This document shows, piece after piece, positions 6,478-64,000 of a stretch of 64,000 nt of DNA. The stretch is from Tolypeutes matacus. Taxonomy: Eukaryota; Chordata; Mammalia; Cingulata; Chlamyphoridae. The stretch spans positions 33,600,083 to 33,664,082 of the forward strand of contig JAKSZT010054334.1 of assembly GCA_026826555.1 (NCBI GenBank), in the 5' to 3' direction. The translations under genes were made by a program, and so were the position numbers. The notes beneath the pieces were generated by a model. It was not told the DNA's origin. It was given only the letters and a program-made list of their open reading frames with translations, and searched no databases. The stretch's first letter is position 1; each line of letters begins with the position of its first letter.

Positions 6478-7619
6478 GGCCAGCAAGAATATTTTTAATC
6501 TCATCCATCGTGTCTTTCATTCCCATAAGCTCTGTTACTTTCTTTGTAGGCTTCCAAATTGTTCTTTATGCTCACCCAGTGTCTTTGTAATATCTTTTAT
6601 CTCTTTAATCATATTTTCCTTTAATTCTTTGAATTGATTTATGAGATTTGTGTGATTATCACTGATTAGCTGTCTTAAATCCTGTATGTCAACAGGATAT
6701 TTGGTTTGTTCTTTTGGGTGGGGCCATCTCTTCCTGTTTCCTAGTATGGCTTGTAATTTTTTGCTGATGTCTAGGCATCTGAATATTTTTGTGAATTTAC
6801 TTTGATGATCAATTTCTCTCCCTTGCATACTCCTGCACCTCCCACCCCCATGGCCCTTCTTTGATTTTTGGTTCAACAAACCAAAAAATTGCCTTTAAAA
6901 CTGCCCAGCTTACATTGTCAAAATTGGACCAGGGACTCACTAATGGGGTGCTGATTTTCTCCCAGGAGCTGGGACTAAAGAGAGACCTTAAAGTAGTTTT
7001 TTTTCCTTACAGTTTCATGGCTAGTCAGCAGATGTTGCTCGTCAGCGAATCTTTCTATGGAGGTGTTTTTCTTTTAACCTCCACTTGCCCATGTTTATGG
7101 TCTGGCCAGAGCTGAGATTCAAATCAGACTCTGCTGGCTGAATTTACTGAAGAGAAACCACTCTCCACCCTCTGACGCACCATGCCTCTTCCCTTGAAAC
7201 AGCTGATGGGGATGAAAATATCTGTTCCCCTCTCAGTTGGCTGCAGTGAGCCAGGGCCTTTATCTAAGCTTAATGTCTTGAGGGATGGGGATGGGTGCCC
7301 TTCCTGGCTGCCACAGGGATTTAATAACTCACGTTTGTTGTTTTGGGTTTTTCGTTTCTCTGGCCCTCACCCTCCTGGGGGTTATACAGCACTGTCCTGG
7401 TCTGCTGACTGCCAAAGAAGGTACCTCAGATAGCTTTTGTCCCTTTCTCCTGTGTTTATGTGAAAGAGATGTGCTCTGCCTGCCTACTCCAATGACACCT
7501 TCCTAGAACTCCATACCATGTTTTTTAAAAAATACTTTTACTATTTATACATGTATAACACTGTTTTTTGTTTTTTATTATTTATATGTGTTTTGAGATT
7601 TACACAGTATAGTAAGCAT

Positions 7620-7745
7620 GGTTTTGCATTTTGCTTTCTTAAAACTTTTATTTTGAAATAATTTTAAACTTATGGAATTGCAAAAATAGCACAGAAATCC
7701 CATGTACTATTCACCCAGATAAAACAATTATATTAAATATTTTGT
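7620..7745 (-). mobile_element. Old L1M-type 3' end fragment
   Basis: TTTATTTTGAAATAATTTTAAAC..ATTGCAAAAATAGCACAGA is the reverse of the end shared by many old mammalian L1M copies (TGTACTATTCACCCAG-like end). Diverged. Confidence 0.55.
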
Positions 7746-7934
7746 CATGGACAAAAGACTTGAATAGACATTTATCCAAAGAAGAAATACAAATGGCAAA
7801 GAACACATGAAAAAGTGTTCAACATCACTAATGATTAGGGAAATGCAAGTCAAAACTACGATGTGATATTATTTCACACCTATCAGAATGGGCACTATTA
7901 AAAAGATAGAGAACTAAAGTGTTGGAGAGGATAT

Positions 7935-26279: not shown

Positions 26280-27286
26280 TTTACTGATATAATTTTCATT
26301 TCTAGACTCTTTCCAAGCCTCTCTGTCCTGTCTTTTCTTTTCAGGCTATAGCACTCCCTTTAGTATTTCTTGCAAAGCTGGTCTCTTGGTTACAAACTCT
26401 CTCAGTTTCTGTTTATCTGTGAATATTCTAAACTCTCCCTCATTTTTGAAACACAGTTTTGCTGTATATAAGATTCTTGGCTGGCAGTTTTTCTCTTGCA
26501 GTATCTTAAACATATCATACCATTGTCTTCTTGCCTCCATGGTTTCTAATGAGAAATCGGCACTTAAACTTATTGGGCATTCCTTGTACGTGATGCATTG
26601 CTTTTCTCTTGCTTCTCTCAGAATTCTCTGACTTTGGCGTTTGACATTCTGTTTAGTATGTGTTCTCAGGGTAGGTCTACTCGGAATTATTTGGATGGGA
26701 GTACATTGTGCTTTTTGGACATGGACAACTATGTCCTTTGATAGAGTTGGGAAATTTTCTACCATTGTTTCTTCAGATATACCTTCAGTCCCTTTCCTTT
26801 CTCTTCTCATGTATGTTTGCACATCTCTTACCATCATTTAGTTCCCTGAGACTTTCCATTCTTTTCGTCATCTGTTTTTTGTATGTTTGCTTTTTGGAAG
26901 GCTCATTGATCCTTTCTTCTGCCTCCCGAAATCTGCTGTTATATGCCTCCAGTGTACTTTTTTTTTTTTTTACCGGGAGGTCCCGGAGATTGATCCCGGG
27001 TCCCTCCATATAGGAGAAGGATGCCCAACCATTTGAGCCACATCTGTCCCCCCTCCAGTGTACTTTTAATTTCATTTATTGTGCCTTTCGTTTCCACAAG
27101 ATCTGCTATTTTTCTATGTATGCTTTCAAATTCTTCTTTGTGCTCACCCAGTGTCATCTTAATATCCCTAATCTCTTTAGCTATCTCACTGAATTTATCA
27201 AGGGGATTTATTTGAACATCTATGATTATTTGTCTCAACACATTTATGTCTCCTGGAGGCTTCTCTTGTTCCTTTGACCGGGCCAT
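26280..27286 (-). pseudogene. L1-D ORF1 remnant
   Basis: Begins ATG at 27286 with MARSKEQEKPPGDINVLRQI, then a coiled coil (SEIAKEIRDIKMTLGEHKEE, FESIHRKIADLVETKGTINE). A SINE follows at 27051-26962. The C-terminal part includes ISLSADFSLETMEARRQWYD, the conserved C-terminal domain, and ends near the KRPALQEILKGVL segment at 26346. Frameshifts and the SINE make it non-functional. The intact protein is an RNA-binding trimer. Confidence 0.85.
26962..27051 (-). mobile_element. Short DAS-type SINE in L1-D ORF1
   Basis: A single head (GGACAGATGTGGCTCAAATG, GGGATCAATCTCCGGGACC) and an A tail. The duplication CCTCCAGTGTACTTTT is exact at 26946-26961 and 27052-27067. Confidence 0.94.
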
Positions 27287-27469
27287 ATCTTACTGTTTCA
27301 TGGTATGGATTGTAATTTTTAGTTGGTGTCTTGGCTGACTAGTGACTTACTAGATGTATTTATTCTGGACACAGTTTCTCTCTTTAGCTCAAGGATTTCT
27401 TGCCCTTTCTCCCTTGCTGGTTGTGTAGCAGGACTCAAGGATATAGTTGGTATTGTAAGCTGTGGAGGC

Positions 27470-28060
27470 TTGAAGCTGCTCGTGTTGCTCCAGGAACCGA
27501 TGAAGCTTCTCCACCTTTCTCCTCTGCCAGCAGTAGGGACAGAGTGGCAGCCATGTGTAGTAATCTAAGCCATGCAGGCCAAGACCGTCTGTAGTTGACT
27601 GGAGAGACTGATGAAGCTTTAGTCCCCTTCCTCCCCTACCTGGAGCATGGACGAGCTGCAGATGTGGACAGCAATCTATGCCATGTGGGTCCAAAATGAC
27701 TATAGTTGCCCAGGTAGACAGATGTAGCACCAGCCCTCTTCCCCAGTGCCAGGGGTGGGGATGGAACCTACAGAGTACCCACCAATCTAATCTGTGTAGG
27801 CCGAAATCACCTGCAGTTGTCCAGAGAGGCTAAAGAAACACAGCTCCCTCCTATCCTATGGGGGATGGGGGAGCAAGGATGGAATCGAAGGCACCCAACA
27901 AACTAGTCCAAGCAGATCAAAAGCACCTTCAGTTGCCCAGAGAGGCAGAGTAAACACAGCTCCCTTCCTAGCCTACTGGGGTACAGGGATGGAGCCCCAA
28001 GTGTCCGACTATCCAGTTTGTGCTGGCCAAAAGCACCTGCAGTTGCCCAGAGAGGTCAGT
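27470..28060 (-). repeat. L1-D 5' UTR tandem array, about six units of 110-116 bp
   Basis: The anchor TGCAGTTGCCCAGAGAGG (plus-strand view) or a variant recurs at about 28038, 27928, 27812, 27701, 27590 and 27476, spacings 110, 116, 111, 111 and 114. Each unit also has a GCACCYGCAG..ACACAGCTCCCTYC-like part. The array lies between a unique 5' section (28617-28110) and ORF1. The same unit builds 54891-56300. Confidence 0.88.
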
Positions 28061-28601
28061 GCAGGTCCCCCTGCAGGTCCATGCCAGAGAAGGGGCAGGA
28101 GTCTAGGCTAGGGTTGTAATCCGATCTGGGTGGAAAGAAGCTGGTTCCTGCCGTCACTATGATTTTCAAAGAGCCCTGATCCCCTTGTGCCAGGGGCGGA
28201 GTTAAAATGGTGGCTACTTGCCTCTTCCCAACTTGGACAGGTTCAGACTTTAGTTAGCTGTTCTTTGGATTACACTTTAGCCAGCTGAATTTACTAATCA
28301 GTAATGAAGTTGGTGCCTGACTGTTTCTTCCTCCTACAGTTTTTGGGAAATGAAGTTTCCAACTTCAGCTATGGCATAGCTCTCGAGGAGGCTTTTGTTA
28401 TACTCCATGGCGGACTCTATGGCATGGTATGCTCTCCCCATGAGTCTTCACTGCAGATGTGTAGTCTCCTCCTTCCATTTTTTCAAGAATGTTGCAGGAG
28501 ACTCTTCTATTCTCCTGGTCCCCCCTCAAACAGGTGCTTTAGATAGCTCTGGGTGCTTACTAACTGCCTTGTAGGACGAGCTGACTCTTGGAGCTCCTTA
28601 C

Positions 28602-28613
28602 TCTGCCATCTTC
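28602..28613 (-). promoter_or_regulatory. YY1-like site at the 5' end of L1-D
   Basis: The minus strand has GAAGATGGCAGA a few bases from the 5' terminus. AAGATGGC is the YY1 core known at the start of primate L1s, where it fixes the transcription start. Here the function is inferred from position and motif. Confidence 0.55.
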
Positions 28614-28629
28614 TGCATAGACTGGATTT

Positions 28630-31243: not shown

Positions 31244-31612
31244 ATTTAAGCCTACATATATGTAAATTAAAGACTGAATTACTATATCAAATTCAGGAAA
31301 GCTTAGAATCAATGAATACCATCTTTCACTCTGGATTCATGTTCAATTTGTTCACTACAAAATAAAATGTTTAATTCCCTAAGGGAAGAAATCTGAATTT
31401 TTGTTCATAATAAAGGAAAGCTTACTTTTTTGGGTGAAGAGATGTAAAATTGATGACACCACTATAAAAGTAAAAAACTTTTGCTACTCCATCTGGTTAA
31501 AATCACATTCTCCAGTTGTTTTCTATACTAAGCCTCAAATTTTTGTGAGAAGATCCTATATATTAAAAATCTAGTCATTAAAAACTAAATGATCTTGGAT
31601 TCAACTTCCAAG

Positions 31613-31623
31613 GAAGATGGCAG
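31613..31623 (+). promoter_or_regulatory. YY1-like site at the 5' end of L1-E
   Basis: GAAGATGGCAG sits within the first 20 bases of the element, the same position as in L1-D although the rest of the 5' UTR is unrelated. Function inferred. Confidence 0.55.
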
Positions 31624-32754
31624 AGTAGGGAACTCAGTCCTTCCACCTTAACAACTATTAAAGAGGCAGGAACTGTCTGAAATGACTATTTAGAAACTCC
31701 AGAGGCCAGAAGAACACTGTACAGTTTCCAGGGAAGAGGATGGGGAAAAGGCTGATAAATTACTATAAAAAACTGTGAATTGCTCTCTTTATGCATTGGC
31801 TACTAGAATCCATCTCCCACTCTTGTGGTATGTTGCCACTGGGTCCAGTCTCTGGCTAGATGCTGTTGACACAGGACATAAAAATCCTCTTCCCTAAGAG
31901 GCTTTTTATGGCTGATCACTGATTACGGCTTTTTATTAGCAAATTTGGATGGCTGGGTACTGGGTCGAGACAGCTATTATTTCAAACTGCTCCAGACAAA
32001 GTCAGCAGCAGCCATGCTTTCAGTCCTCCTTGGACACAGGCAGAGGCAGTGAGGATTTAAAGATCAGGACTTCCTCAGAGCTGTGGGGGAAAGTTAGCTG
32101 AAGAGCTGCATATGATGGGCAGGCCAGGAAAGCTCAGCTTTTAAGAGTCGTCGGAAAAGCTGTTGGAAGAGCTTCCTGACCCCCTTCCACAAGGCACTTT
32201 AAAGTTGCTCTGCACCCCTTTGGGGGGATCCCTGGTCTTGTTTTATTTGGGAAAAGCCAAGTTGAGAAAGTTCTCCCACGGGTTACCTTCCTCCCAGAAT
32301 CTGCCTGACAGGCAAAAGCAGTGTAAGACAATGAAAGGAGTGTAAAAAACTACAGAGGCAGACAGTCTGGGACAACCAAACGTCCGTAAATAGGGGGACT
32401 CCAAAACAACTAACAAGCAAAAACCCAGGACAAAACAGAGGGCCAGTAAGACAGGGAAAACCCAGCACAGTGCATTCACCTTGGGCAAACCTTCCTGATA
32501 AGAGGACTGAAGCTCAAGTAAATCTCTGTTTTATCACAAGCTGATTACAAAACCAAGAAACAGACAACCCAGGGAGTCAACCCCAGAGTTAACATTATAT
32601 AATATTAAAATGTACAGTATGTAACAAAAGAGTACAAGGCAAACAAAGAAAAAGGAAATGACCCATCCAAAGGAAGAGGCTAAACATACAGAAAATATCA
32701 ACGAAGACAAAAAGAAAATGGGCACACAGAACAAACCCTTTAAAAAAAATGATG

Positions 32755-35469: not shown

Positions 35470-36709
35470 GACCATAATGAAATGAAGCTAGAAATCAATA
35501 ACAGAGGGAGAAAGGGAAAATTCACAAATATGCAGAAATTAAACAACATACTCTTAAATAAAGAAGAAATAAGAAGCAAAATTAGGAAATACCTTGAGGC
35601 AAATGAAAATGAAAATATGACATAATAAAACTTATAGGATTCAGTGAAGGCAGTGCTGAGAGGGAATTTTATAGTTCTAAAAGCTTACATTAAGGACTTC
35701 CAGAAAGATGGAGGACTAGAAAGACATGGGACTCTCACCTCTTCCAGAAAAATAGCTACAGGACAGGTAGAAATGGCCTAGAAAAAAATCTTTAAGGGTT
35801 TAGGATACCAGTAGAAAGCTATACTGCCCAGAAGAGGGGATAAAGGAAAAAAATCTCAATGGCAAAACTGTGAGTTAAAGCTGCAGCTGGAGCTGCCAGT
35901 GCCCTCCATCAAACTATAGATAATGTGAATTCTCAGGCTTCAGGGCTGGCTACTAGAAACAAAGTGAGCCCCAGGGATCCACCTCCCCAGGAAACAGGAG
36001 AGGGACACAGCTTAAGGCTAACTCAGATTTTGACCCACAAATTTGTTCTGCTGAATTCCAGGAGCCATTCCAGGCTGGGAGTAACCATGCCATTATTGCC
36101 TTGGGAGCTAGAATGGGACTAAAGAGCTCTGATCCTCTCAAACAGCCTCCCTACTGACTGGGACTGGTTGTTGAGGATGCAGAGAAGAGTGGAATTATTT
36201 CCTACCCAGGAAAAGAGGGGGCTGCCAGCAAAGGTTGGAAAACAACCTCTGAGAAAGTTTGAATTACGAGGTTCTTGGTCTTCAGGCAGGATCCTCTATC
36301 ATATTAATTTGGTCCATGTTGCAGCAAAAACACTCTGACCAGGCTTTGAACTGAGAGGGCTGCAAAAGAGCACCATGTGTCAGCAGACAAAAGAAGTGCA
36401 TGTGAGGAAATTAAAAGTAAATAACAGCATTTTTTTCTGGCCTTTACACCCTCTCTCCCGTCAGATCCCTTGGAAGTGGGTCTGCAACCCATTACTGGGT
36501 CCAGGGCCCAGATTTGAGCAACTAACATAGACAATCCTAAAGACCCAGAACAGGTTGAACAAAGAACCAAAGAACACAGTAACACAAGCCTCCTGCCACT
36601 AAAACCCTACGAAAGAGAGAAATATTGAGCATCTGAGTAAACTCATCACCCTAATCAGATGCCTAGACATCAGCAAAAAATTACAAACCATACTAAGAAA
36701 ATGTAAGAA

Positions 36710-37400: not shown

Positions 37401-39011
37401 GTAAAATATTCACAAAAAAACATAAAGATAGTTCATAAAAAAGAATCTGCCTTTGCAGGAAATATTAAAGGAAGTCTTACAACTCGAAGAAAAAGACAGT
37501 AGAGAGAGGCTTGGAGGAGAGTGTAGAAGGCAAGACTAGGAGACAGCATAACCAAAAGAATAAAAAGACAGATGAAAATAAGATATGACATATGAAAACC
37601 AAAGAATACAATGGTGGAAGTAAATAATGCATTTACAGTAGTATCATTGAATGTGGATGGATTAAACTCCCCAATCAAAAGATATAGGCTGACAGAATGG
37701 ATTAAAAACAAACAAACATGAACCATCCATATACTGCCTACAAGAGACTTACCTTACACCCAAGGACATAAACCAGCTAAAAGTGAAAAGTTGGAAAAAA
37801 ACACACCACGTAAACAATAACCAAAAAAAAAAAGCAGGGGTAGCTATACTAATATCAGACAAAACAGACTTTAAATGCAAAAAAAGTTATGAGAGATACA
37901 GAAGGCCATTATATATTAATAAAAAGGACAATCCACCAGGAAGATATAACAGTCATAAATATCTATGCACTTAACCAGGGTGCCCCCCAAAATACATAAG
38001 ATAAACTGGCAAAACTGAAGGGAGAAACAGACATCTCTACAATAATCGCTAGAGACTTCAACACACCACTCACATCATTAGATAGAACAATTAGACCGAA
38101 GATCAACAAGGAAACAAAGAACACAAACTATATGAAACTGACCTAGACCTAAGAGACATATACAGAATGTTGCATCCTAAATCAGCAGGCTATACATTCT
38201 TCTGAAGTGTTCATGGATCTTTCTCCGGGAGAGACCACATGTTAAGTCACAAGGCAGGTCTCAATAAATATAAGAAGACTGAAATTATACAAAGCCCCTT
38301 CTTGATCATAATGGAATGAAACTGGAAATCAGTAATAGATGGGAAAGGGGAAAATTCTCAAATGTCTGTAGGCTAAACAACACACAACATACTCCTAAAC
38401 AATCATTGGGTCAAAGAAGAAATTGTAAATGAAATTAGCAAATATATTGGGATGAATGAAAATGAGAACACAACTTATCAAAACTTATGGGATGCAGTGA
38501 AAGAGTGTGTGAGGGAAATTTATAGCCCTAAATGCCTATATTGAAAAAGAAGAGCTAAAATCAAAGATTTACCTGAACAACACAAGGAACTAGAAAAAAC
38601 AAACAGCAAACCATTCCCAAAGCAAGAAGGAGGGAAGAAATAAGAGCAGAAATAAATGAAATTGAGAACAACAAAACAATAGAGAAAATCAACAAAACCA
38701 AAGGCTGGTTCTTTGAGAAAATCAATAAAATTGACAAACCCTTAGCTAGACTAACAAAGAAAAAAGAAAGAAGATTCAAATAAATATAATCAGAAATGAA
38801 AGGGGGGAACTTACGAATGACCCCACAAAAATAAAAAAAGATTTTAAGAGGATATAATGAGAAACTGTATGACAACAAACTAGACACAACCTAGATGAAA
38901 TGGACAAATTCCTAGAAACACACAAACAACCTACACTGACTATAAGAAATACAGGAACTTAACCAATCACATTTAAAGAGATTGAATCAGTCATCAAAAA
39001 TCTCCCAAAAA

Positions 39012-53225: not shown

Positions 53226-54210
53226 TAGGATAAATGGTAGTACTATTCACAGATGTAAGATATATTGCAAAAGGATAAGAATAGGAGCACAGGAAAATCA
53301 TGAGTTCAGTTTTTTATATATTGAGTTGAAGATGGCTCTAAAAAGCTCAAGTGAGACATCAAATAGCATGTTCTTCTAATAAATACTTCAATAGCTCAAA
53401 ACACTTAAATAATTTCTAAGCTTGTTTGGTAAGATTTTTGCTTCCCTCACTATACACTGAACACCCTAAAGGCAGATCTTTTTTATATAGTAGACTGCAT
53501 AGGACATGATAGTATCTGATAAATGGTCGGTATTTGTCCAAATTGATCTTTGCCCTACAAAAGAGAAGACAATGCTCCAGGTCAGAAAAGAATATATCTA
53601 GGAATTCTAATTTCAAAGTACAGACTTTTCATTCACCTCCATTATTCTACTTTCATACTTCTTCCTAATCTCTAGGCATCCTAATTTCAAAGTACAGACT
53701 TCTCATTCACCTCCATTATTCTACTTTCATACTTCTTCCTAATCTCTATATTCAAACATATTTCTTCTAAACCATTCTTTTTGGAAGCAGAATCTAATCA
53801 TTGCTACTTATTCTGACTCATTGCCTCTGTCCCAAAGTGACTTAGAAATCTGGTTTTATAGGGAAAAGATCATCTGTCACATACAACTCTTTATTATGAT
53901 CCAGGGAAACAGACTGATATTCCTATCCCAAATTTGCTAATCACTTTGAACAAAAGTCCCCTAAAAGGCAGCTAAAGAGCAACAGACCTGTGTGACTTAC
54001 AGATTTCTGTAGAAATTGTTTACCACAGGGCTCCTTCCTGCAAAGACACTTCTTTAAGACTCCAAATACTAGCCACAAAGCAAGCTTCAACACACAAAAT
54101 AACAAGTATAGACAGATCGTATTCTCTAAACACAATGCAAACAAATTAGAATATCATTAACAAAATTGCACATAAACCCCCTTCTGTATTTTAAGAATTA
54201 AAAAACAACA
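53226..54210. other. PIBF1 intron with a short tandem duplication
   Basis: Unique-looking; see 53607-53748. No gene recognised. Confidence 0.5.
53607..53748. repeat. Tandem duplication, period 74, two copies
   Basis: CTAATTTCAAAGTACAGACT at 53607 recurs at 53681, and identity runs to ..TTCTTCCTAATCTCTA with one T/C difference over about 68 bases. The low divergence suggests a recent event. Confidence 0.92.
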
Positions 54211-54299: not shown

Positions 54300-54306
54300 A
54301 GCGGGG

Positions 54307-54317
54307 CAAGATGGTGG
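54307..54317 (+). promoter_or_regulatory. YY1-like site at the 5' end of L1-C
   Basis: CAAGATGGTGG eight bases from the 5' terminus. It has the same core and position as in L1-D and L1-E; L1-F has AAAGATGGAGG at 35704. Function inferred from primate L1. Confidence 0.55.
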
Positions 54318-54890
54318 CTAAGTAAGACGATCCAAGAGTCAGCTCTTTCTACAAGACAGTTAGTAATCTAAATTGAGCTATCTAAAGCACTTGTTTGGGG
54401 GACCCAGGAGACCACAAGAGCATCCTGCAACATCCTTGAAAGAATGGAAGGAGGAGACTGCCCAACTGAAGGTTTGTGAGTACAGCAGGTCATACAGTAG
54501 AGCACGCCATACCACAGAGCAGGTGCCCATCCTCCACTGGTAGCGCAAGCCACCTAGGAGCTATTCTATGGCTGGAGTGGGAAGCTCCATTTCCCAAAAC
54601 TGGGAGAGGAAGAGACAGTTGGCCACGAACTTCAGCTACTGAATAGTAAATCTGGCTACCAAAAGTATAATCCTAAGAACAGCTAAAGTTTGAACCTGTC
54701 CAAGTCAGAAAGAGGTCAGTGTCTGCCATTTTAACTCCACCCTGGGCATGAGGGGAAGTGGGGCTGATTGAAAATCACAGTGACAGTAGGAACTGGCTTC
54801 TTTCCACTCAGAACATATTGCATCCCTAGCCCAGGCCCTGCCTCACCTCTGGCAGGGAAGAAGTTGGAGGGACCTGCACCACCCTCTCCA

Positions 54891-56300
54891 GGCAATTGCA
54901 GGTACTTTCAGCCAGCACAGACTGAATAATCGGGCACCTGGGGCTTCATCCCCGCACCCCAATAGGATAAGAGAGGAGCTGTTTCTTCAGCTTCTCTTGG
55001 CAACTGCAAGTGCTTTCAGCCTGCACGAACTGGTTTGTTGAGCATCTTTGATTCCATCTCCACCCCTCCATCCCTATAGGAAAGGAGGAAGCTAGTGTTG
55101 CTTCAGCCCCTCTGGGCAATTGCAGGCACTTTCAGTCCTTTCAGACTAGATACTTGGGACACCTGTACCTCCATCACCGCCCCCCCCAACAGGATAGGAG
55201 GGGAGCTGTGCTTCCTTGGCCTCTCTGAGCAACTGCAGATGTTTTTGGCTGGCACAAGTTCGTTTGTTGAGAGCCTTCGATTCCATTTCCACCCCCCAAC
55301 CCCTAAAGGATAGGAGAGGGCTGGTATTTCCTCAGTCTCAAGACAACTGAAGGTACTTTTGACCTGCATGAACTCAACTGCTGGGCCTCTGTAGCTCCAC
55401 CATCACCCCCGATAAGAAAAGAGGGAGGCAGTGTTTCCCCAGCCTCTCTGGGTAACTGCAAGTGCTTTTGGCTCACACAGACTGAAAAGTCAGACACACC
55501 TGTAGCTCCATCCCTGCCCCTAAGTAGCATAGGAGGAAAGCTGTGTTTCCTCATCCTTTCCAGGAAATGGCAGGCACTTTTGGCCTACACAGATTGGACT
55601 GGTGGGTGACTGTGGATTCATCCCCCGCCCCAATAAGATAGGAGTGGATGGGTGTTTCCTCAACCTCTCACAGCAACAGCAGGCACTTTCGGCCTACAGG
55701 AACTGAACTGTTGGATGCCTGTGGCTCCACCTCCACCCTCCAACAGGATAGGAGGAGCTGATGTTTCCTCAGCCTCACTGGGCAATGGCAGGCACTTTTG
55801 GCCTACACAGACTGAACTGTTGGGTGCCTGTGGTTCCATTCCCACCTCCTAAAGGGTACAAGGGACAGACCTCCCTCAGCCTCTTAGGGCAACTGCAGAT
55901 GAATTCGGCCCACACAGAGGGCCCATCCCCACCACTGGCAGGAGAGGAGGGGGCTGGTGCTATGCCAGTCTACCGGGATAAGTGCGGATATTTTGGACCC
56001 ATACAGCATAGACTGCTGCCGATATCTGCAGCTCCATCCCTGTCCCAGGCAAGGGAGAAAAGGGTGTGAAGCTAAATCAGTCTCTCCAGGCAACTGCAGA
56101 TGGACTTGTCCTGCACAACTTGGATTATTACACATGACTGCTGCTCTGTCCCTACCCCTGGCAGAGGTGAAGGGTGGGAGAAACTTTATTGGTTCCTTGG
56201 ACAATACAGGCAGCTTCAACCTCCACAGCGTACAGTACCAACTATAGCCTCAGCCCCTACTACACAACCAGCAAGGGAGAAAGGGCAAGAAAGCGGTAAA
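54891..56300 (+). repeat. L1-C 5' UTR tandem array, 13 units of about 109 bp
   Basis: The anchor GGCAAYTGCAGGYACTTTYG or a variant starts at about 54891, 54999, 55115, 55228, 55342, 55451, 55563, 55672, 55781, 55888, 55975, 56089 and 56199; spacings 107-116 except one of 87. Each unit continues GCCTRCACAGACTGAACTG, TGTRGCTCCATCCCCRCCCC, then AGGATAGGAGGRGCTG and TTTCCTCAGCCTCTCTG. The array is GC-richer than its surroundings. Units have diverged, so the array is not newly amplified. Confidence 0.92.
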
Positions 56301-56399
56301 CTAAAGAGAGAAACTTGGAGCCCAGAATAAAGACTGTAGTAAGCCAGTTGCCAAGACACCAACAAAAAATTACAATTCACACCAAGAAACAGGAAAATA

Positions 56400-57190
56400 A
56401 GACCCAGGCAAAGGAACAAGATAAGCCTCCATATGACATAAAGGAGTTGAGACAACCAATCATAGATGTTCAAATATATCTCCTTAATAAATTCAATGAG
56501 CTGGCTAAAGAGATTAATGATATTAAGACGACACTGGGTGAGCAAAAAGGAGAATCTGAAAGCACACACAGAAAAATAGCAGATCTTGTGAAAATGAAAG
56601 GCACATTAAATGAAATTTAAAATATACAGGAGGCATATAGCAGCAGATTTGAGGAGGAAGAAGAAAGGACTGGTGAGCTTGAAGACATGGCTTCCAAAAG
56701 TGAACACACGAAAGATGAAGAAAAGAATGGAAAAAATTGAACAGGGTCTCAGGGAACTATATGAAGGCAAGAGATGTGCAAACATACAAGTCATGGATGT
56801 CCCAGAATGAGAACAGAAGGGAAAAGGGCAGGAGGACTATTTGAAGAAATAATGGTAGAAAATTTCCCAACCCTATTCAAAGGACATAGATATCCGTATC
56901 CAAGAAGCACAATGTACTTCCATCCAAATAACTCTGAATAGACCTACTCCAAGACATATACTAAACAGAATGTCAAATGCCAAAGTCAAACAGAGATTCC
57001 TAAGAGCAGCAAGAGAAAAGTGATACATCACATACAAGGGATACCCAAAAAGATTAAGTGCCGATTTCTCATTAGAAACCATAGAGGCAAGAAGGCAGTG
57101 GTATGATATATTTAAGATATTACAAGAGAAAAACTGCCAGCCAAGAATCTTATATCCAGCAAGACTGTCTTTCAAACATGAGGGGAGAGT
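56400..57190 (+). pseudogene. L1-C ORF1 remnant
   Basis: The ATG seen in L1-D (MARSKEQ) is mutated here; AKEQDKPPYDIKELRQPIID and NKFNELAKEINDIKTTLGEQ follow, then a stop in the coiled coil. The RNA-binding part is frameshifted. The C-terminal part near 57060-57190 (GATTTCTCATTAGAAACCAT) is the DFSLETxEARRQ motif. Confidence 0.85.
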
Positions 57191-57209
57191 TTAGAATATT
57201 CACAGGCAA

Positions 57210-60200
57210 GCGAAAGGCTGTAAAAAAATATTCCACGCATGCAGTAACCAAAAAAAAAAAAAAAAAGCTGAAGTAGCTATATTTATATCAGACGAAATAG
57301 ACTTTAAAAGCAAAACTGGTAGTAGAAACAAGGAAGGACTATATATTAATAAAAAGAGGCAATTTACCAGGAAGAAATAACAATCATAAATGTATATGCA
57401 CCTAACCAGGATAATACAAATTGCATGTGGCAAACACTGGAAAAACTGAAGGGAGAAATAGATGTCACTACAATAATAATTGGAGAGTTCAATACACCAC
57501 TGTCAGCACTGGATAGAACATCTGGGTAGAGGATCAATAAAGAAACAGAGAGCTTGAATAATATGATAAATGGACTAAAGCTAATAGACACATACAGAAC
57601 ATTGTACCCCAAAACAGCAGGATATACATTCTTCTCAAGTGCTCATGGATCTTTCTCCACGATAGACTATATGTTGGGTCACAAAGCAGAGCTCAATAAA
57701 TACAACAAGATCAAAATTGAGCAAATCACTTTCTCTGATCATGATGGAATGAAGCTGGAAATCAACAAGAGGCAGAAAAAGAGAAAATTCACAAATGTAT
57801 GGAGATTAAACAACACACTCTTAAATAATCAGTGGATCAAAGTAGAAATTGTGAGTGAAATCAATAAATATTCATGACAAATAGAAATGATAACACAACA
57901 TATCAGAAACTATGGGATGCAATGAAGGCAGTACTGAGAGGGAAATTTCTATCCCTCAATGCTTTACATTCAAAAAGAAGAAAGAACTAAAATCAATGAC
58001 CTAACTACACAGCTGGAGTTACTAGAAAAAGAACAGCAAACTACTCCCAAAGCAATCACAAAGAATGAAATTACAAAGATCAAAGCAGAAATAAATGAAA
58101 TTGAGAACAAAAAAACAACAGAAAGAATTAACAAAACCAAAAGTTCGTTCTTAAAGATTAACGAAATTGATAAACATTTAGCTAGACTGACAAAGGAAAA
58201 AAGAGAAGATGCAAATAAAATAAAAAATGAAAATAAGGACATTACTACTGTCCCCACAGAAATAAAAGAGATCCTTTGAGGATACTATGAACAACTGTAC
58301 GCCAACAAACTAGACAATGTAAACAAAATGGACAAATTCTTGGGAACATACAAACAACATACACCGACCTTAAAAGAAATAGACAACCTCAATAAACCAA
58401 TCACATGTAAAGAGATTGAAACAGTCATCAAACAACTTCCCAAATGAAAAGCTCAGGACAAGATGGTTTCACAGGTGAGTTCTACCAAGCATTCAAAGAA
58501 GATTTAATACCAATCTTACTCAGGCTCTTCCAAAAAACTGAAGAAGGAAAGCTACCAAACTCATTCTATGAAGCCAGTATCACCTTAATACCTAAGCCTG
58601 ATAAAGATGTTACAAAAAAGAAAATTACAGACCTGTTTCCCTAATGAATGTGGATACAAATATCCTTGATAATCAAATCCAACAACACATTAAGAGTTAT
58701 TCATCATCAAGTGGGTTTTATATCAGGCATGTAAAGTTGGTTCAACACAAGAAAATCAATCAGCCTAAAATACCACATTAATAAATCAAAAAAGAAAAAT
58801 CACATGATCCCATGGATTGATGTAGACAAGGCATATGAGAAAACAGAGCATCCTTTCTTGATAAAAAATACCATAAAAGAACTGGAGGAATCTTCTTTAA
58901 CACGATAAAGGCCATATATGAAAAACCCACAGCTAACAGTGAACCCAATGATGAAAGACTGAAAGCTTTCCTTTTGAGATTGGGAATAAGACAAGGATGC
59001 CCACTGTCACCACTGTTGCTCAATATAATGCTAGAGGTTCTAGCTAGAGCAACTGGGCAAGACAAAGAAATAAAAGGCATCCAAATCAGAAAGGAAGAAG
59101 TAAAACTTTCGCTATTCACAGATGATATGATCCTATGTCTAAAAAGTCCCAAAAAATCTATAAAAAGGCTGCTAGATTTCAGTAGAGTGTCAGGATACAA
59201 GATCAATACACAAAAATCAGTGGTGTTTCCATACACTAGTAATGTGCCATCTGAGGAGGAACCCAGGGGAAAAAATTCATTTACAATAGTGACTAAATGA
59301 ATCAAATATTCAGGAATAAACTTAACCAAGAATGTAAAGCAATTGTATTTAGAGAACTACAATGCATTGCTAAAAGAAATTTTAAAAGATCCAAATAATT
59401 GGAAGAACATTCCACGCTCATGGATTGGAAGACTAAATATCACTAAGATGTCAATTTTACCCAAATTGATATACAGATTCAATGCAATTCCGATAAAAAA
59501 TTCCCCAGCATTTTTAAAAGAAATGGAAAACACAATTATCATATTTATTTGGAAGGGCAAAGGGCCCCAAATAGCTAGAAACATCTTAAAAAGGAAAAGT
59601 GAAGTTGGAAGACTCTCACTTCTGGACTTTACAGTAAAAACAGGGTAAAAACAGCATGGCACTGGCGTACAGATAGGCACATAGACCAATGGAACTGAAC
59701 TAATGGTTCAGAAACAGATCCTCACATCTATGATCAAGTGATTTTTGACAAGGCTGTCAAACCCTACACAGCTGGGGCAGAATAGTCTATTCAACAAATG
59801 GTGTTGGGAGAAATGGATATCTGAATCAAAAGGAAAGAGAGAGGACATCTATCTCACAACTTATACAAAAATTAACTCAAAATAGATCAAAGGCCAAAAT
59901 ATAAAAGCGAGAAACAGAAAGCTCCTAGAAGAAAATATAGGAAAACATCTTCAAGACCTGGTGGTAGATGGTGCATATTTAAACCTCACACCAAAAGCAT
60001 GAGCAACAAAAGAAAACATGGATAAATGGGAGCTTCTTAAACATTTTTGTGATTCAAAGGACTTTGTCAAGGTGAAAATGCAGCCCACTCAATGGGAGAA
60101 AATGGAACCCACATATCCCATAAGGGTTTGATTTCCATTCTATATAAAGAGATCATACAACTCAACAATAAAAGAGCAAACAATCCAATTTAAAAATGGG

Positions 60201-60790
60201 CAGAAGATTTAGAGACATTTCTCCAAAGAGGAAATACAAATGGCCAAAAAGCACATGGAAAATTGTTCAATATCAACAGCTTGTAAGGAAACACAAATCA
60301 AAACAACAATGAAATACCCTCTCATACCGCAGAGAATGGCCATTATTTAAAAAACAGAAAGTGTTGGAAAGGATGTGGAAAAATTGGAACACTCTTTCAT
60401 TGTTGGTGTGATTGTAAAAATGGTACAGCCTCTGTGGAAGAGAGTTTGGCAATTCCTCAGGAGGCTAAATATAGAACTGCCATATGATCTGGCATTCCCT
60501 CTACTAGGAATACATCCAGAGGAACTGAAAACTGTGACACAAACAGACATTTGCACACTGATGTTCAAAGCAGCATTATTCACAATTGCCAAAAGATGGA
60601 AACAACCTAAGTGTCCATCAACCAATGAATGGATAAACAAAAATGTGGTATATTCATAAGATGGAATACTATGCTGCTGTAAGAAGAAATGAAATTGGGA
60701 CACATAATGATAACATAGATGAACCTTGAAACATTATGCTAAGTAAAATAAGCCAGACACAAAAGGACAAATATTGCATGGCCCACTAAT
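57210..60790 (+). pseudogene. L1-C ORF2 remnant
   Basis: The first endonuclease part (NVNGLN, QETH) is deleted; the frame resumes near 57240. The endonuclease end reads FSTIDYMLGHKAELNKYNKI and ITFSDHDGMKLEI, keeping the SDH motif. Reverse transcriptase: [20 protein letters not shown], then [20 protein letters not shown], with the catalytic box FTDD at 59115-59126 (A to T). C-terminus at 60375-60659: LPYDLAFPLLGIHPEELKTV and KRWKQPKCPSTNEWINK. Several frameshifts. Inactive. Confidence 0.88.
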
Positions 60791-60820
60791 GTGAACTAAA
60801 TATTAAGAATACATGCGTGG

Positions 60821-62037
60821 CCACCTGAGAGCCTCCTTGTTGCTCAAATGTGGCCTCTCTCTAAGCCAAACTCAGCATATGAATGTACTACCTTCCCCCC
60901 AACATGGGACATGACTCCCGGGGATGAGCCTCCCTGGCAAGAGGGATTAATACCAAGTGCCAACTGGCAACACGACTGGAAAAAGACCTTGAATAAAAGG
61001 GGGAAAAGGTAAAGACAAATGAGTTCAAGTGGCTAAGAGACTTCAAAGAGAGTCGGGAGGTCATCCCAGAGGTAATGCTTATGCACACCTCAGTAGGAGC
61101 TCATAGAACATCAAAGTGCATATCACCCCACACAGAGGGGCTCCAGAGAGCTCTGGAGACACCCAGGTCCTATATAAGGGGGGATAGCCCCAGAGACTGA
61201 CGCCTTATCAGTGGGCTCTATTTTGGAATCCGTGCTCCTAAGAGTGACAGAATTGGACTCAAATAAGTCCTCCCTGCACATGGTTCATCAGTTCCTTCTA
61301 TTCAAACCTATTTGTGATACTGGAGTTTTTAGGTATACTTCCAGAGACTGGAGCCTCTGGCCTACCTATGTGCCAGGTGTGCGTGGAATCTCGGTGGAGC
61401 TGCAACTCCTACCCTACAGCTCAACAGACTCATCCAAGACATCTGGCGAGGAGACAACAATGGGCAACGGCCATCCCAGGGAATGGAGAGGGCCTGCATC
61501 TGCAGGCAGGATCATCCCACCCACCATATCCATGGGATATAAGCCCTCTCTCACTTGGAGGTGGAGTGGACATCACCATCCCAGTCCCCTCAGGATTGGG
61601 GGAAGAACTATGGACTAGAGTGGACTTAATGGTATTCTGTTGTACACATATGGTGATTCTAGCAATGGAAGAAATTATAACAGTGAGGTGGAGCCAGTGG
61701 CCACTAGACACTTTCGGGGCAGGGAGGGGATGTGCAGTTGAAATACAGGGGCTTTTTCGAGATTTGGAGGTTGTCCTGAGTGCCGTTGTAGCAACGGATG
61801 TAGGCCATTTTAAATCAGCACACACCATTCAGAACTGTGTGGGAGAGAGAGTGGTCTACAATGTGAACTGTGGTCTATGGTTGATGGCAAGGCCCCAGGA
61901 TGTGTAAGTCCATTGAGGGTGATGGGCCACACTTGTGGGAGATGTTTGTGTGGGATGTGGTGGGAGGTGTGGGAGGTGGGGAACATGGGAATCCCGGTAG
62001 GTTCCATGTAATATTTTAGGTAATCTAAGCACCTCTT

Positions 62038-62075
<38 letters not shown>

Positions 62076-62199
62076 TATCATTTTGGTAAGCAAATGCACA
62101 TATATGCATATATATTTACATATCATTTTACAAATATTGGTATGTATTGTGAAAATTTTCTTACCCACAATAAAAAATAAATTAAAAAAAAAAAAAAAA
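60821..62199 (+). mobile_element. 1.38-kb retroposon in the L1-C 3' UTR, class uncertain
   Basis: Flanked by AAGAATACATGCGTGG (60805-60820) and AAGAATACATGCATGG (62200-62215), and ending in an A17 tail, so it was inserted by target-primed reverse transcription. It is not L1 ORF2 and has no tRNA head. It begins CCACCTGAGAGCCTCCTTGT, has CCTATATAAGGGGG (TATA-like) near 61170, and the longest plus-strand frame is 61314-61907 (197 codons, no recognised domain). An internal A16-(AT)n at 62038-62079 is followed by about 120 bases and a second poly(A) signal, AATAAA near 62170. It may be a long 3' UTR of a different L1 lineage or an independent non-autonomous family; similar sequence is, as I recall, common in xenarthrans, but I cannot verify that. 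Confidence 0.7.
62038..62079 (+). repeat. A16 followed by (AT)n
   Basis: An internal A tract directly followed by about 12 AT units; probably the original tail of the retroposon body that turned into a microsatellite. Confidence 0.85.
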
Positions 62200-62869
62200 A
62201 AGAATACATGCATGGAGTTAAAACCTAGACTATAGGATATTAGGAGAAAAGAGAACAGTTATGAAGGAGTGCTGATGCTTAATGTAGGTGGAAGTTTTAA
62301 TTAACTTGACTGTAAAATTGTGGAAATGGATAGTTGATGGTAACACATTATAGTGAGTAGCAGCTGGTTTATAAATGGGATTGTGGCTGAAAAGGGTAGT
62401 CTAGGGATGTAAATGTCAGTTGAAAGAAAGCTAGAGAATAATCTAGGGACTGAATAACACAGTGAACCCAGAGGAGGATGAGAATTGTGCTTAATAATAC
62501 AAATGCAAGAATGTCCTTCTGTGAACTCAAATGGATGCACGTCACTATTGCAGGGTGGTGGGATTGTGGAGAAGCATGGGAAAAATACAATTAATGTAAC
62601 CTATGGACTATAGTTAACAGCAATAGCGCAATATTCTTGCATCAATGTCAAAGATGTACTATGCTAATAATAGGGGGTATGGAAAAAGTATACCAAATGT
62701 CCATGATGGACCATATTTAGTGGTAATAGTCTGATGATATTATCTCATAATCTGTAACAAATGTTCCAAAACGGTGTGGTGTGTTGGTGAAGGGGTGTTG
62801 TATGGGAATTCTACACATGTGCATCATTGTTTTGTAAGATCACAACTTCAGTAATAAAAATATATTTAA

Positions 62870-63235
62870 GGGGAGCAGATGTGGCTCAAGCAATTGGGCG
62901 CCTGCCTACCACATGGGAGGCCCTGGGTTCGGTTCCCAGTGCCTCCTAAAAAGGACGAGCAGACGCCACAATCAGCAGATGCCGCAGATGCCACAACCAG
63001 CAGACACTGCAACTGCCGCAACGAGCAGATGCTGCAAACAGCAGATGCCACAGCCAGCAGGAAGCAGAAGTAGCTCAAGCAGTTGGGCACTCGCCTCCCA
63101 CATGGGAGGCTCCAGGTTCAGTTCCTGGTGCCTCCTAAAGAAGATGAGCAGACAACCAGCAAACAGATGAGGAGCTAACTCAGGGGGAGGGGGATGAGGG
63201 GGAAATAAAAATTAAAAAAAAACAAAACAAACATT
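62870..63235 (+). mobile_element. Dimeric DAS-type SINE with minisatellite-like linker, in the L1-C tail
   Basis: Head one GGGGAGCAGATGTGGCTCAA and GGTTCGGTTCCCAGTGCC. The linker at 62957-63062 has repeated AGCAGATGCCRCA-like units (at least seven). Head two GAAGCAGAAGTAGCTCAAGC and GGTTCAGTTCCTGGTGCC. The tail is ACAAAACAAAC. It abuts the L1-C end. Confidence 0.92.
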
Positions 63236-63254
63236 AAAATACATATATATATTA

Positions 63255-63474
63255 GGGAAGCAGCTGTGGCTCAATTGGTTGGGTTCCCATTACCATATGG
63301 GAGTCCCCGGGTTCGATCCCTGGGGCCTCCTGGTGAAGAAGCTCCCACGCGGCGCGGTGAGCTCAGGGCCCACACAGCGCTATGAGCTGGCACAACAAAG
63401 GAAGACAAGCAGCAAGGGAGAGATAAATAATAAATAAATAATAAAAATAAAAAATAAAATTGATTTAAAAAAAT
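63255..63474 (+). mobile_element. DAS-type SINE in the L1-C tail
   Basis: GGGAAGCAGCTGTGGCTCAA, GGTTCGATCCCTGGGGCCTC, CGGCGCGGTGAGCTCAGG and a tail (AATAAATAATAAA). Its flanks are both ATATATATATT-rich, consistent with insertion in an AT-rich tail. Confidence 0.9.
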
Positions 63475-63500
63475 AGCTTTAAATATATATATATTTATAA

Positions 63501-64000
63501 AAAATTTGAGGGATGCAGTTAAAGATATATTTAGCAGAAAATTTAAAGCCTTTAATGTGTAAGAAAAAGACAACTTTAAAGAAGCAATCAGTTCAAGAAG
63601 TTAGGCAAAAAAGGATAAATACAAAGAAAGCAGAAAGAGAAAAAGAATAAAGAGAAGACACTAATGATGTAAAAACAAAATGGGATGCCATTAAATAATA
63701 TATAAATAGAGAAAGACATAAGACTCAATATAGAGGGAGTGGATGTGGCTCAGGCCGTTGGACACTCGCCTCCCACATGGGAGGTCCTGGGATTGGTTCC
63801 CGGTGCCTCCTGGAGAAGACAAGCAAACAATGAGCAGACAGATGAGAGAATCATCTGGTGGGGGGGATAAATAAAAAAATAAAAAATAGAGTAAATAAAT
63901 AAATCTTAAAAAAAAAAAAAAAAGACTCAATAACAATATAGTAAAAATATCTGTTGTCTTCAAATTGATTTGTACAGTCAATGCAATTTTTTAAATCTGC
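63501..64000 (+). mobile_element. Old L1 ORF2 fragment, right part
   Basis: TTTGAGGGATGCAGTTAAAG, ATTTAGCAGAAAATTTAAAG and TTGTACAGTCAATGCAATTT follow L1 ORF2 (LWDAxKA.. and YRFNAI..) on the plus strand, with large deletions. It continues past the window and is interrupted by a SINE. Confidence 0.7.
63731..63922 (+). mobile_element. DAS-type SINE in the old L1
   Basis: GGGAGTGGATGTGGCTCAGG, GATTGGTTCCCGGTGCCTCC, a body with AAACAATGAGCAGACAGATG, and a tail AATAAATAAATC plus A17. The duplication AGACTCAATA is exact at 63721-63730 and 63923-63932. Confidence 0.94.

What the first reader, a model, noticed from the sequence alone, without database searches (positions are those of the whole stretch)
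54891..56300. L1 5' UTR built from a tandem array of about 110-bp units, 13 copies
Thirteen anchors with a near-constant spacing (107-116 bp) lie between a unique 580-bp 5' section and ORF1 of L1-C. Mouse L1s carry promoter monomers at their extreme 5' end; here the array is internal to the 5' UTR. A tandem-unit 5' UTR in a xenarthran L1 may be an independent origin of a monomeric promoter or enhancer. Whether the units drive transcription is inference.
Basis: partly seen in the sequence, partly recalled or inferred. Interest (0 to 1): 0.75.

Follow-up and report, generated by a model that had tools for sequence, protein, structure and literature searches.

The report
Tandem-repeat leader of a LINE-1
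A decayed jumping gene (LINE-1) in this DNA carries, between its start and its first protein gene, a row of 13 copies of a unit of about 110 letters, and a related copy nearby has six; similar rows are already reported for LINE-1s of several other mammals, so this looks like one more example rather than a new kind of thing.

Summary
A tandem array of 13 units (spacing 107-116 bp in 11 of 12 intervals, one 89 bp) fills 54891-56301, between a 585-bp non-repeated 5' section and ORF1 of a decayed L1, element C. A second L1 of the same family, D (minus strand), inserted independently, has the same layout with 6 units. Outer units match one to one, so D lacks seven whole units, C3-C9. The array was therefore part of the mobile source, and its length differs by whole units. 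Both copies begin at an AAGATGG (YY1-like) block about 0.6 kb upstream of the array. Three other L1 5' regions in the window have no units. I infer a fixed upstream start, with the array transcribed as leader and perhaps acting as a repeated enhancer; promoter activity could not be tested. Novelty weakens: passages seen report repeat-bearing L1 5'UTRs in rat, hyrax, horse, elephant, opossum and naked mole-rat, and one paper says only the mouse arrays lie near the 5' end. Genome-wide counts could not be made (genome search did not complete) and the species was not established. New member of a known kind.

The parts
54306..54890 (+). Element C: non-repeated 5' section of the 5'UTR, beginning with an AAGATGG (YY1-like) block at 54308
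   Evidence: 76% identical to D over 546 aligned columns; terminal block
54891..55887 (+). Element C array, units 1-9 (core units, 107-116 bp)
   Evidence: Anchors, unit alignment, profile matches
55888..56301 (+). Element C array, units 10-13 (diverged units; unit 10 shortened to 89 bp)
   Evidence: pair with D units 3-6 at 80, 75, 81 and 73%
56302..56400 (+). Element C: non-repeated link from the array to ORF1 (tether-like); end approximate, placed by eye
   Evidence: 56301-56630 is 85.8% identical to D; similarity to other L1s of the window begins near 56301-56345
56400..57210 (+). Element C ORF1, broken by frameshifts and stops; start approximate
   Evidence: Pfam Transposase_22 and Tnp_22_dsRBD on one frame piece with X at stops; translations
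28048..28614 (-). Element D: non-repeated 5' section, same start block as C
27385..28047 (-). Element D array, 6 units (matching C units 1, 2, 10, 11, 12, 13)

Best explanation
Element C is an old copy, with its 5' end kept, of an L1 family whose 5'UTR (about 2.1 kb) has three parts: a fixed 5' end with an AAGATGG block and 0.58 kb of non-repeated sequence, a tandem array of ~110-bp units, and a short link to ORF1. The array belonged to the mobile source element, since an independent insertion (D) has it in the same place. Its length differs by whole units: D lacks C3-C9, more likely by contraction in D's line than by later expansion in C's. Inferred mechanism: transcription starts at the 5' terminus under a YY1-like site, the array lies downstream inside the transcribed leader, and its repeated unit most likely acts as a reiterated activating (enhancer) module that strengthens the upstream promoter, as added monomers do in mouse, without supplying the start site. 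Shown: anatomy, homology, whole-unit length difference, common 5' end of two copies. Inferred: initiation at the terminus, enhancer action.
For: Array statistics and profiles. Unit matches C1-D1 80%, C2-D2 74%, C10-D3 80%, C11-D4 75%, C12-D5 81%, C13-D6 73%. Both copies start at the same block with unrelated upstream flanks apart from an AAC simple repeat. The first 23 nt of the start of D match G at 91% although the rest of the 5'UTRs is unrelated. Forcing C1-C9, C2-C9 or C3-C9 into one clade is disfavoured (AU p 0.036, 0.0495, 0.016), so extra units seem to predate the C/D split. YY1 largely sets the human L1 start (PMC11602158 abstract); mouse monomers add promoter activity (PMC9022269 and PMC6454616 passages). 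AAGATGG occurs in both 5' sections and in neither array, on either strand. Sense ATG is scarcer than in shuffles in both arrays (C 11 against 18.3+/-3.2, D 4 against 9.2+/-2.2), weakly in line with a scanned leader.
Against: No expression or reporter data. C and D differ more in the 5'UTR (K2P 0.25-0.30 in the 5' section and matched units) than in later ORF1 and the end of ORF2 (0.13), so the units are not specially constrained. Conservation is not concentrated in blocks within the unit (permutation p 0.19). The ATG result rests on repeats of one unit, so its effective sample is small. The YY1 core as ATGGC/GCCAT also occurs in the arrays (2 in C, 3 in D, sense ATGGC), and C's own start block reads ATGGT, not ATGGC. 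AAGATGG occurs 22 times in the window. 5' ends are known for two copies only; candidate target-site duplications are weak (69 of 1000 and 65 of 500 random stretches score as well). The AU values are borderline and the groups were named after the tree was seen.
Confidence: 0.55

Rival explanations
1. Passive array: the units arose by slippage, unequal exchange or template jumping during copying and are carried as leader sequence with no regulatory role.
For: Faster 5'UTR than ORF divergence between C and D; no block conservation within the unit; none of 8 units folded (of 19) has z below -2; length differs twofold between two copies.
Against: Two independent insertions kept a multi-unit array; GC of the C array is 0.53 against 0.37 for the window, in line with the GC-rich L1 5'UTRs described in PMC5872511 (passage); arrays recur in other mammalian L1s (passages).
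Confidence: 0.3
2. True mouse-like monomer promoter: units contain their own start sites, and the 585-bp 5' section is a later addition or an extra upstream start.
For: Tandem units upstream of ORF1 with a number that varies between copies. PMC5872511 reports one horse family with ~1200 bp upstream of the usual 5'UTR, read there as a start recruited upstream (passage). ATGGC occurs 2 and 3 times in the arrays.
Against: Both copies extend to the same terminus, 0.57-0.59 kb upstream of unit 1, instead of ending inside the array; no AAGATGG in either array.
Confidence: 0.1
3. A local satellite, or a local duplication that arose after insertion in this copy only.
For: Within the window the units lie only in C and D; a 117-bp satellite (SATCHO1) exists in Choloepus sloths (PMC7644632 passages).
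Against: D is an independent insertion with matching units in the same place. The two published SATCHO1 primers match the arrays no better than shuffled primers (the satellite's full sequence was not seen).
Confidence: 0.02

Closest known systems
Mouse L1Md A/Tf/Gf monomer promoters
   Same: Head-to-tail units in the 5'UTR, number varying between copies, a non-repeated tether before ORF1 (PMC9022269 and PMC6454616 passages)
   Different: Mouse units are about 200 bp and lie close to the 5' end; here ~110 bp and 0.58 kb inside a fixed 5' end. No promoter test here
Tandem-repeat 5'UTRs of other mammalian L1s (rat, hyrax, horse, elephant, opossum)
   Same: Tandem repeats in the 5'UTR, stated not to lie close to the 5' end outside mouse (PMC6454616; species list in PMC9022269; perissodactyl types 1 and 3 in PMC5872511)
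   Different: Horse type 1 has 2-3 repeats; 13 and 6 here. No counts for the other species in the passages seen.
Naked mole-rat L1 5'UTR
   Same: Repeats inside a 5'UTR that has promoter activity in a reporter (PMC7952902 passages)
   Different: Repeats of ~30 bp there, ~110 bp here
Human L1 5'UTR
   Same: YY1-bound sequence at the 5' end that largely sets the start (PMC11602158 abstract); AAGATGG at the 5' end here
   Different: PMC9022269 contrasts the human 5'UTR with monomeric ones (passage)

Membership tests
L1 (LINE-1) retrotransposon | ORF1 with L1 RBD-like and dsRBD-like domains | tested here: met
   Transposase_22 E 9.4e-14, Tnp_22_dsRBD E 9.9e-14 on one of two pieces searched
L1 (LINE-1) retrotransposon | ORF2 with endonuclease and reverse transcriptase downstream | not tested
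   Frame pieces within 57195-60659 read like L1 ORF2 by eye; no domain search was run on them
L1 with tandem-repeat 5'UTR | Head-to-tail units between the 5' end and ORF1, in more than one copy, with variable number | tested here: met
   13 units in C, 6 in D
Mouse-type monomer promoter | Array close to the 5' end, copies ending within units | tested here: not met
   2 of 2 array-bearing copies in the window extend 0.57-0.59 kb beyond unit 1 to the same block
Mouse-type monomer promoter | Units have promoter activity | not testable with these tools
   Needs reporter or CAGE data
Xenarthran L1 family | Host is a xenarthran | not tested
   SINEs beside and inside the elements resemble armadillo DAS-SINEs from recall only; the window's own genome could not be reached

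The most novel reading that the evidence does not exclude
A two-part L1 promoter: an old start block (AAGATGG) kept at the 5' end through the exchange of otherwise unrelated 5'UTRs in the same genome, coupled to a downstream array of ~110-bp enhancer units whose number is reset by whole-unit gain and loss. It would be a monomer system that arose separately from the mouse one, with the array downstream of the start site, so that unit number sets promoter strength and leader length together.
Probability: 0.25. Interest if true: 0.55.

Novelty: new member of a known kind. Interest (0 to 1): 0.35.

Why it matters
It adds a lineage, probably xenarthran, to a recurring pattern in which mammalian L1s carry tandem-repeat 5'UTRs. 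Thirteen units exceed the numbers in the passages I saw (horse 2-3; mouse averages of 3-4 and two insertions with 5.7 and 7.5), though those passages give no counts for the other species. Because the array lies downstream of a fixed start block, copies differing by whole units (13 against 6) would let one ask whether unit number affects L1 activity apart from the choice of start site.

Tried and rejected
Satellite origin: the two published SATCHO1 primers do no better than shuffled primers. RNA structure of units: 0 of 8 units folded (of 19) has z below -2. Block conservation within the unit: p 0.19. A chimeric junction in D at the missing units: the 5' half of D unit 3 is most like core units and its 3' half most like C10, but C10 has a deletion there, so undecided. 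Units in other collections: exact patterns gave 0 in viral contigs and 0 in prokaryote genomes, as expected for a mammalian element. Genome-wide count: the genome search did not complete. Transcription-factor motifs other than the YY1-like block were not scored; no motif library was at hand. Literature: nine searches of open-licence PMC text listed no paper whose title or abstract start describes tandem units in a xenarthran L1 5'UTR; only passages of ten papers were seen, none as a whole, and subscription papers and Repbase reports were not searched.

Full report
OBSERVATION. The array is real. Thirteen matches to one 23-nt anchor lie at 54891-56199 with intervals of 107-116 bp, except one of 89 bp; with the same cut-off (up to 9 mismatches) there are 7 further matches on the + strand and 4 on the - strand outside C and D in the whole window. 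Gapped self-comparison gives off-diagonal matches at offsets of 1-6 and 8 units. The lag-109 match fraction is 0.353 against a largest value of 0.316 in 1000 dinucleotide shuffles. A profile of all 19 units finds 13 units in C and 6 in D and five weak other matches (E 0.04-0.96); it was built from these units, so those 19 hits are not independent. A profile of 13 better-preserved units (C1-C10, D1-D3) finds four of the six units that were left out of it (C11, C12, D4, D5; E 1e-9 to 2e-4), misses C13 and D6, and finds nothing outside the arrays at E<=1. TRF reports only 55499-55846, 3.2 copies.

ANATOMY. C starts near 54306 with an AAGATGG block, has 585 bp without clear repeats, the array to 56301, a link of about 100 bp, and then ORF1, which is broken but gives Pfam L1 domains at E about 1e-13. 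The ORF1 start near 56400 is placed by eye from comparison with D. ORF2-like frames follow; they were not searched for domains. D lies on the minus strand from 28614 and repeats this order with 6 units.

C AGAINST D. Unit identities: C1-D1 80%, C2-D2 74%, C10-D3 80%, C11-D4 75%, C12-D5 81%, C13-D6 73%. D1 is next closest to C6 (75%). The tree pairs the same units, with strong support for C12-D5 and C13-D6, moderate for C1-D1 and C10-D3, weak for C2-D2 and C11-D4. D thus lacks the equivalents of C3-C9. Forcing C1-C9, C2-C9 or C3-C9 into one clade costs 17.8, 14.5 and 17.0 log units, AU p 0.036, 0.0495 and 0.016. This favours a long array in the common source and a loss in D's line, but the values are borderline and the groups were chosen after the tree was seen. 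Flanks upstream of C and D are unrelated except for an AAC simple repeat, so they are independent insertions. Candidate target-site duplications sit at the expected places but are weak alone (69 of 1000 and 65 of 500 random stretches score as well).

DIVERGENCE. K2P between C and D: 0.297 in the 5' section, 0.277 in units 1-2, 0.253 in units 10-13, 0.157 from the array end into early ORF1, 0.133 in later ORF1, 0.129 at the end of ORF2, 0.176 further 3'. The 5'UTR changed about twice as fast as the coding parts measured. CpG is depleted (observed/expected 0.11-0.18 in the four 5'UTR parts, 0.18 for the window). This speaks against strong constraint on the units.

OTHER L1 5' REGIONS IN THE WINDOW. 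Three more were examined: G (31560-32700), E (35600-36640) and F (minus strand, 6780-7750; its 5' end was not located). None of the three shows units or self-repeats. Against the 5'UTRs of C and D they show only a 23-nt match of the start of D with G (91%), a 36-nt match of C with G next to ORF1, and a marginal 24-nt match of C with F (E 0.04). AAGATGG stands at the start of C, D, G and E, but the starts of G and E were located by this block, and it occurs 22 times in the window on both strands. The looser pattern CAAGATGGCNG with up to two mismatches occurs 57 times against 43 expected. The independent evidence for the block is the shared start of C and D and the 23-nt match of D with G.

MECHANISM. 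Two independent copies end at the same place, 0.57-0.59 kb upstream of unit 1, which points to a start site at the terminus. In human L1, YY1 at the 5' end largely sets initiation (PMC11602158, abstract and one passage seen). The array would then be transcribed leader and, by analogy with the additive action of mouse monomers (PMC6454616 and PMC9022269, passages seen), a repeated activating module. AAGATGG is absent from both arrays; the shorter ATGGC core occurs 2 times in the C array and 3 times in the D array. Sense ATG is rarer than in shuffles in both arrays (22 and 16 of 1000 shuffles as low); in the 5' sections it is not clearly so (67 and 520 of 1000); antisense ATG is not clearly depleted (C 18 against 21.9+/-3.4, D 15 against 10.6+/-2.4). 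This fits a scanned leader, but repeats of one unit are not independent. Enhancer action remains inference; a passive array is the main rival.

PRIOR ART. [quoted passage not shown] PMC6454616 (passages) says that tandem structures occur in other genomes but only in mouse close to the 5' end. PMC5872511 (passages) describes two repeat-bearing perissodactyl 5'UTR types, with 2-3 repeats in one. PMC7952902 (passages) describes ~30-bp repeats in a naked mole-rat L1 5'UTR with promoter activity. In passages seen of PMC1764860, PMC13251070, PMC13174262, PMC7644632 and PMC8535693 such an array in a xenarthran L1 is not mentioned. The layout is therefore a known kind. A xenarthran example may be new to print, as far as nine searches of open-licence text show.

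LIMITS. Only two copies, both in this window, were available. The species was not established.

Noticed in passing
60811-62195: An insertion of about 1.4 kb in the 3' part of element C, ending in poly(A) and flanked by a near-perfect 16-bp duplication (AAGAATACATGCGTGG / AAGAATACATGCATGG); identity of the insert not determined.
   Followed up: partly
57204-57244: Element C joins late ORF1 to the inside of ORF2 with only about 40 bp between, where another L1 of the window (37414-37810) has about 400 bp: probably an internal deletion in C.
   Followed up: no
62838-63970 and about 26957-27053: Several SINE-like sequences with A-rich tails, in the 3' end of C and inside ORF1 of D; they resemble armadillo DAS-SINEs from recall only.
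   Followed up: no
31613-32650 and 35704-36600: Two further L1 5'UTRs of about 1 kb that begin with AAGATGG (used to locate them) and share no detected 5'UTR sequence with each other; with C/D this makes three unrelated 5'UTR types in one window.
   Followed up: partly
53597-53748: A two-copy tandem repeat of 74 bp, 96% matching, just upstream of element C.
   Followed up: no
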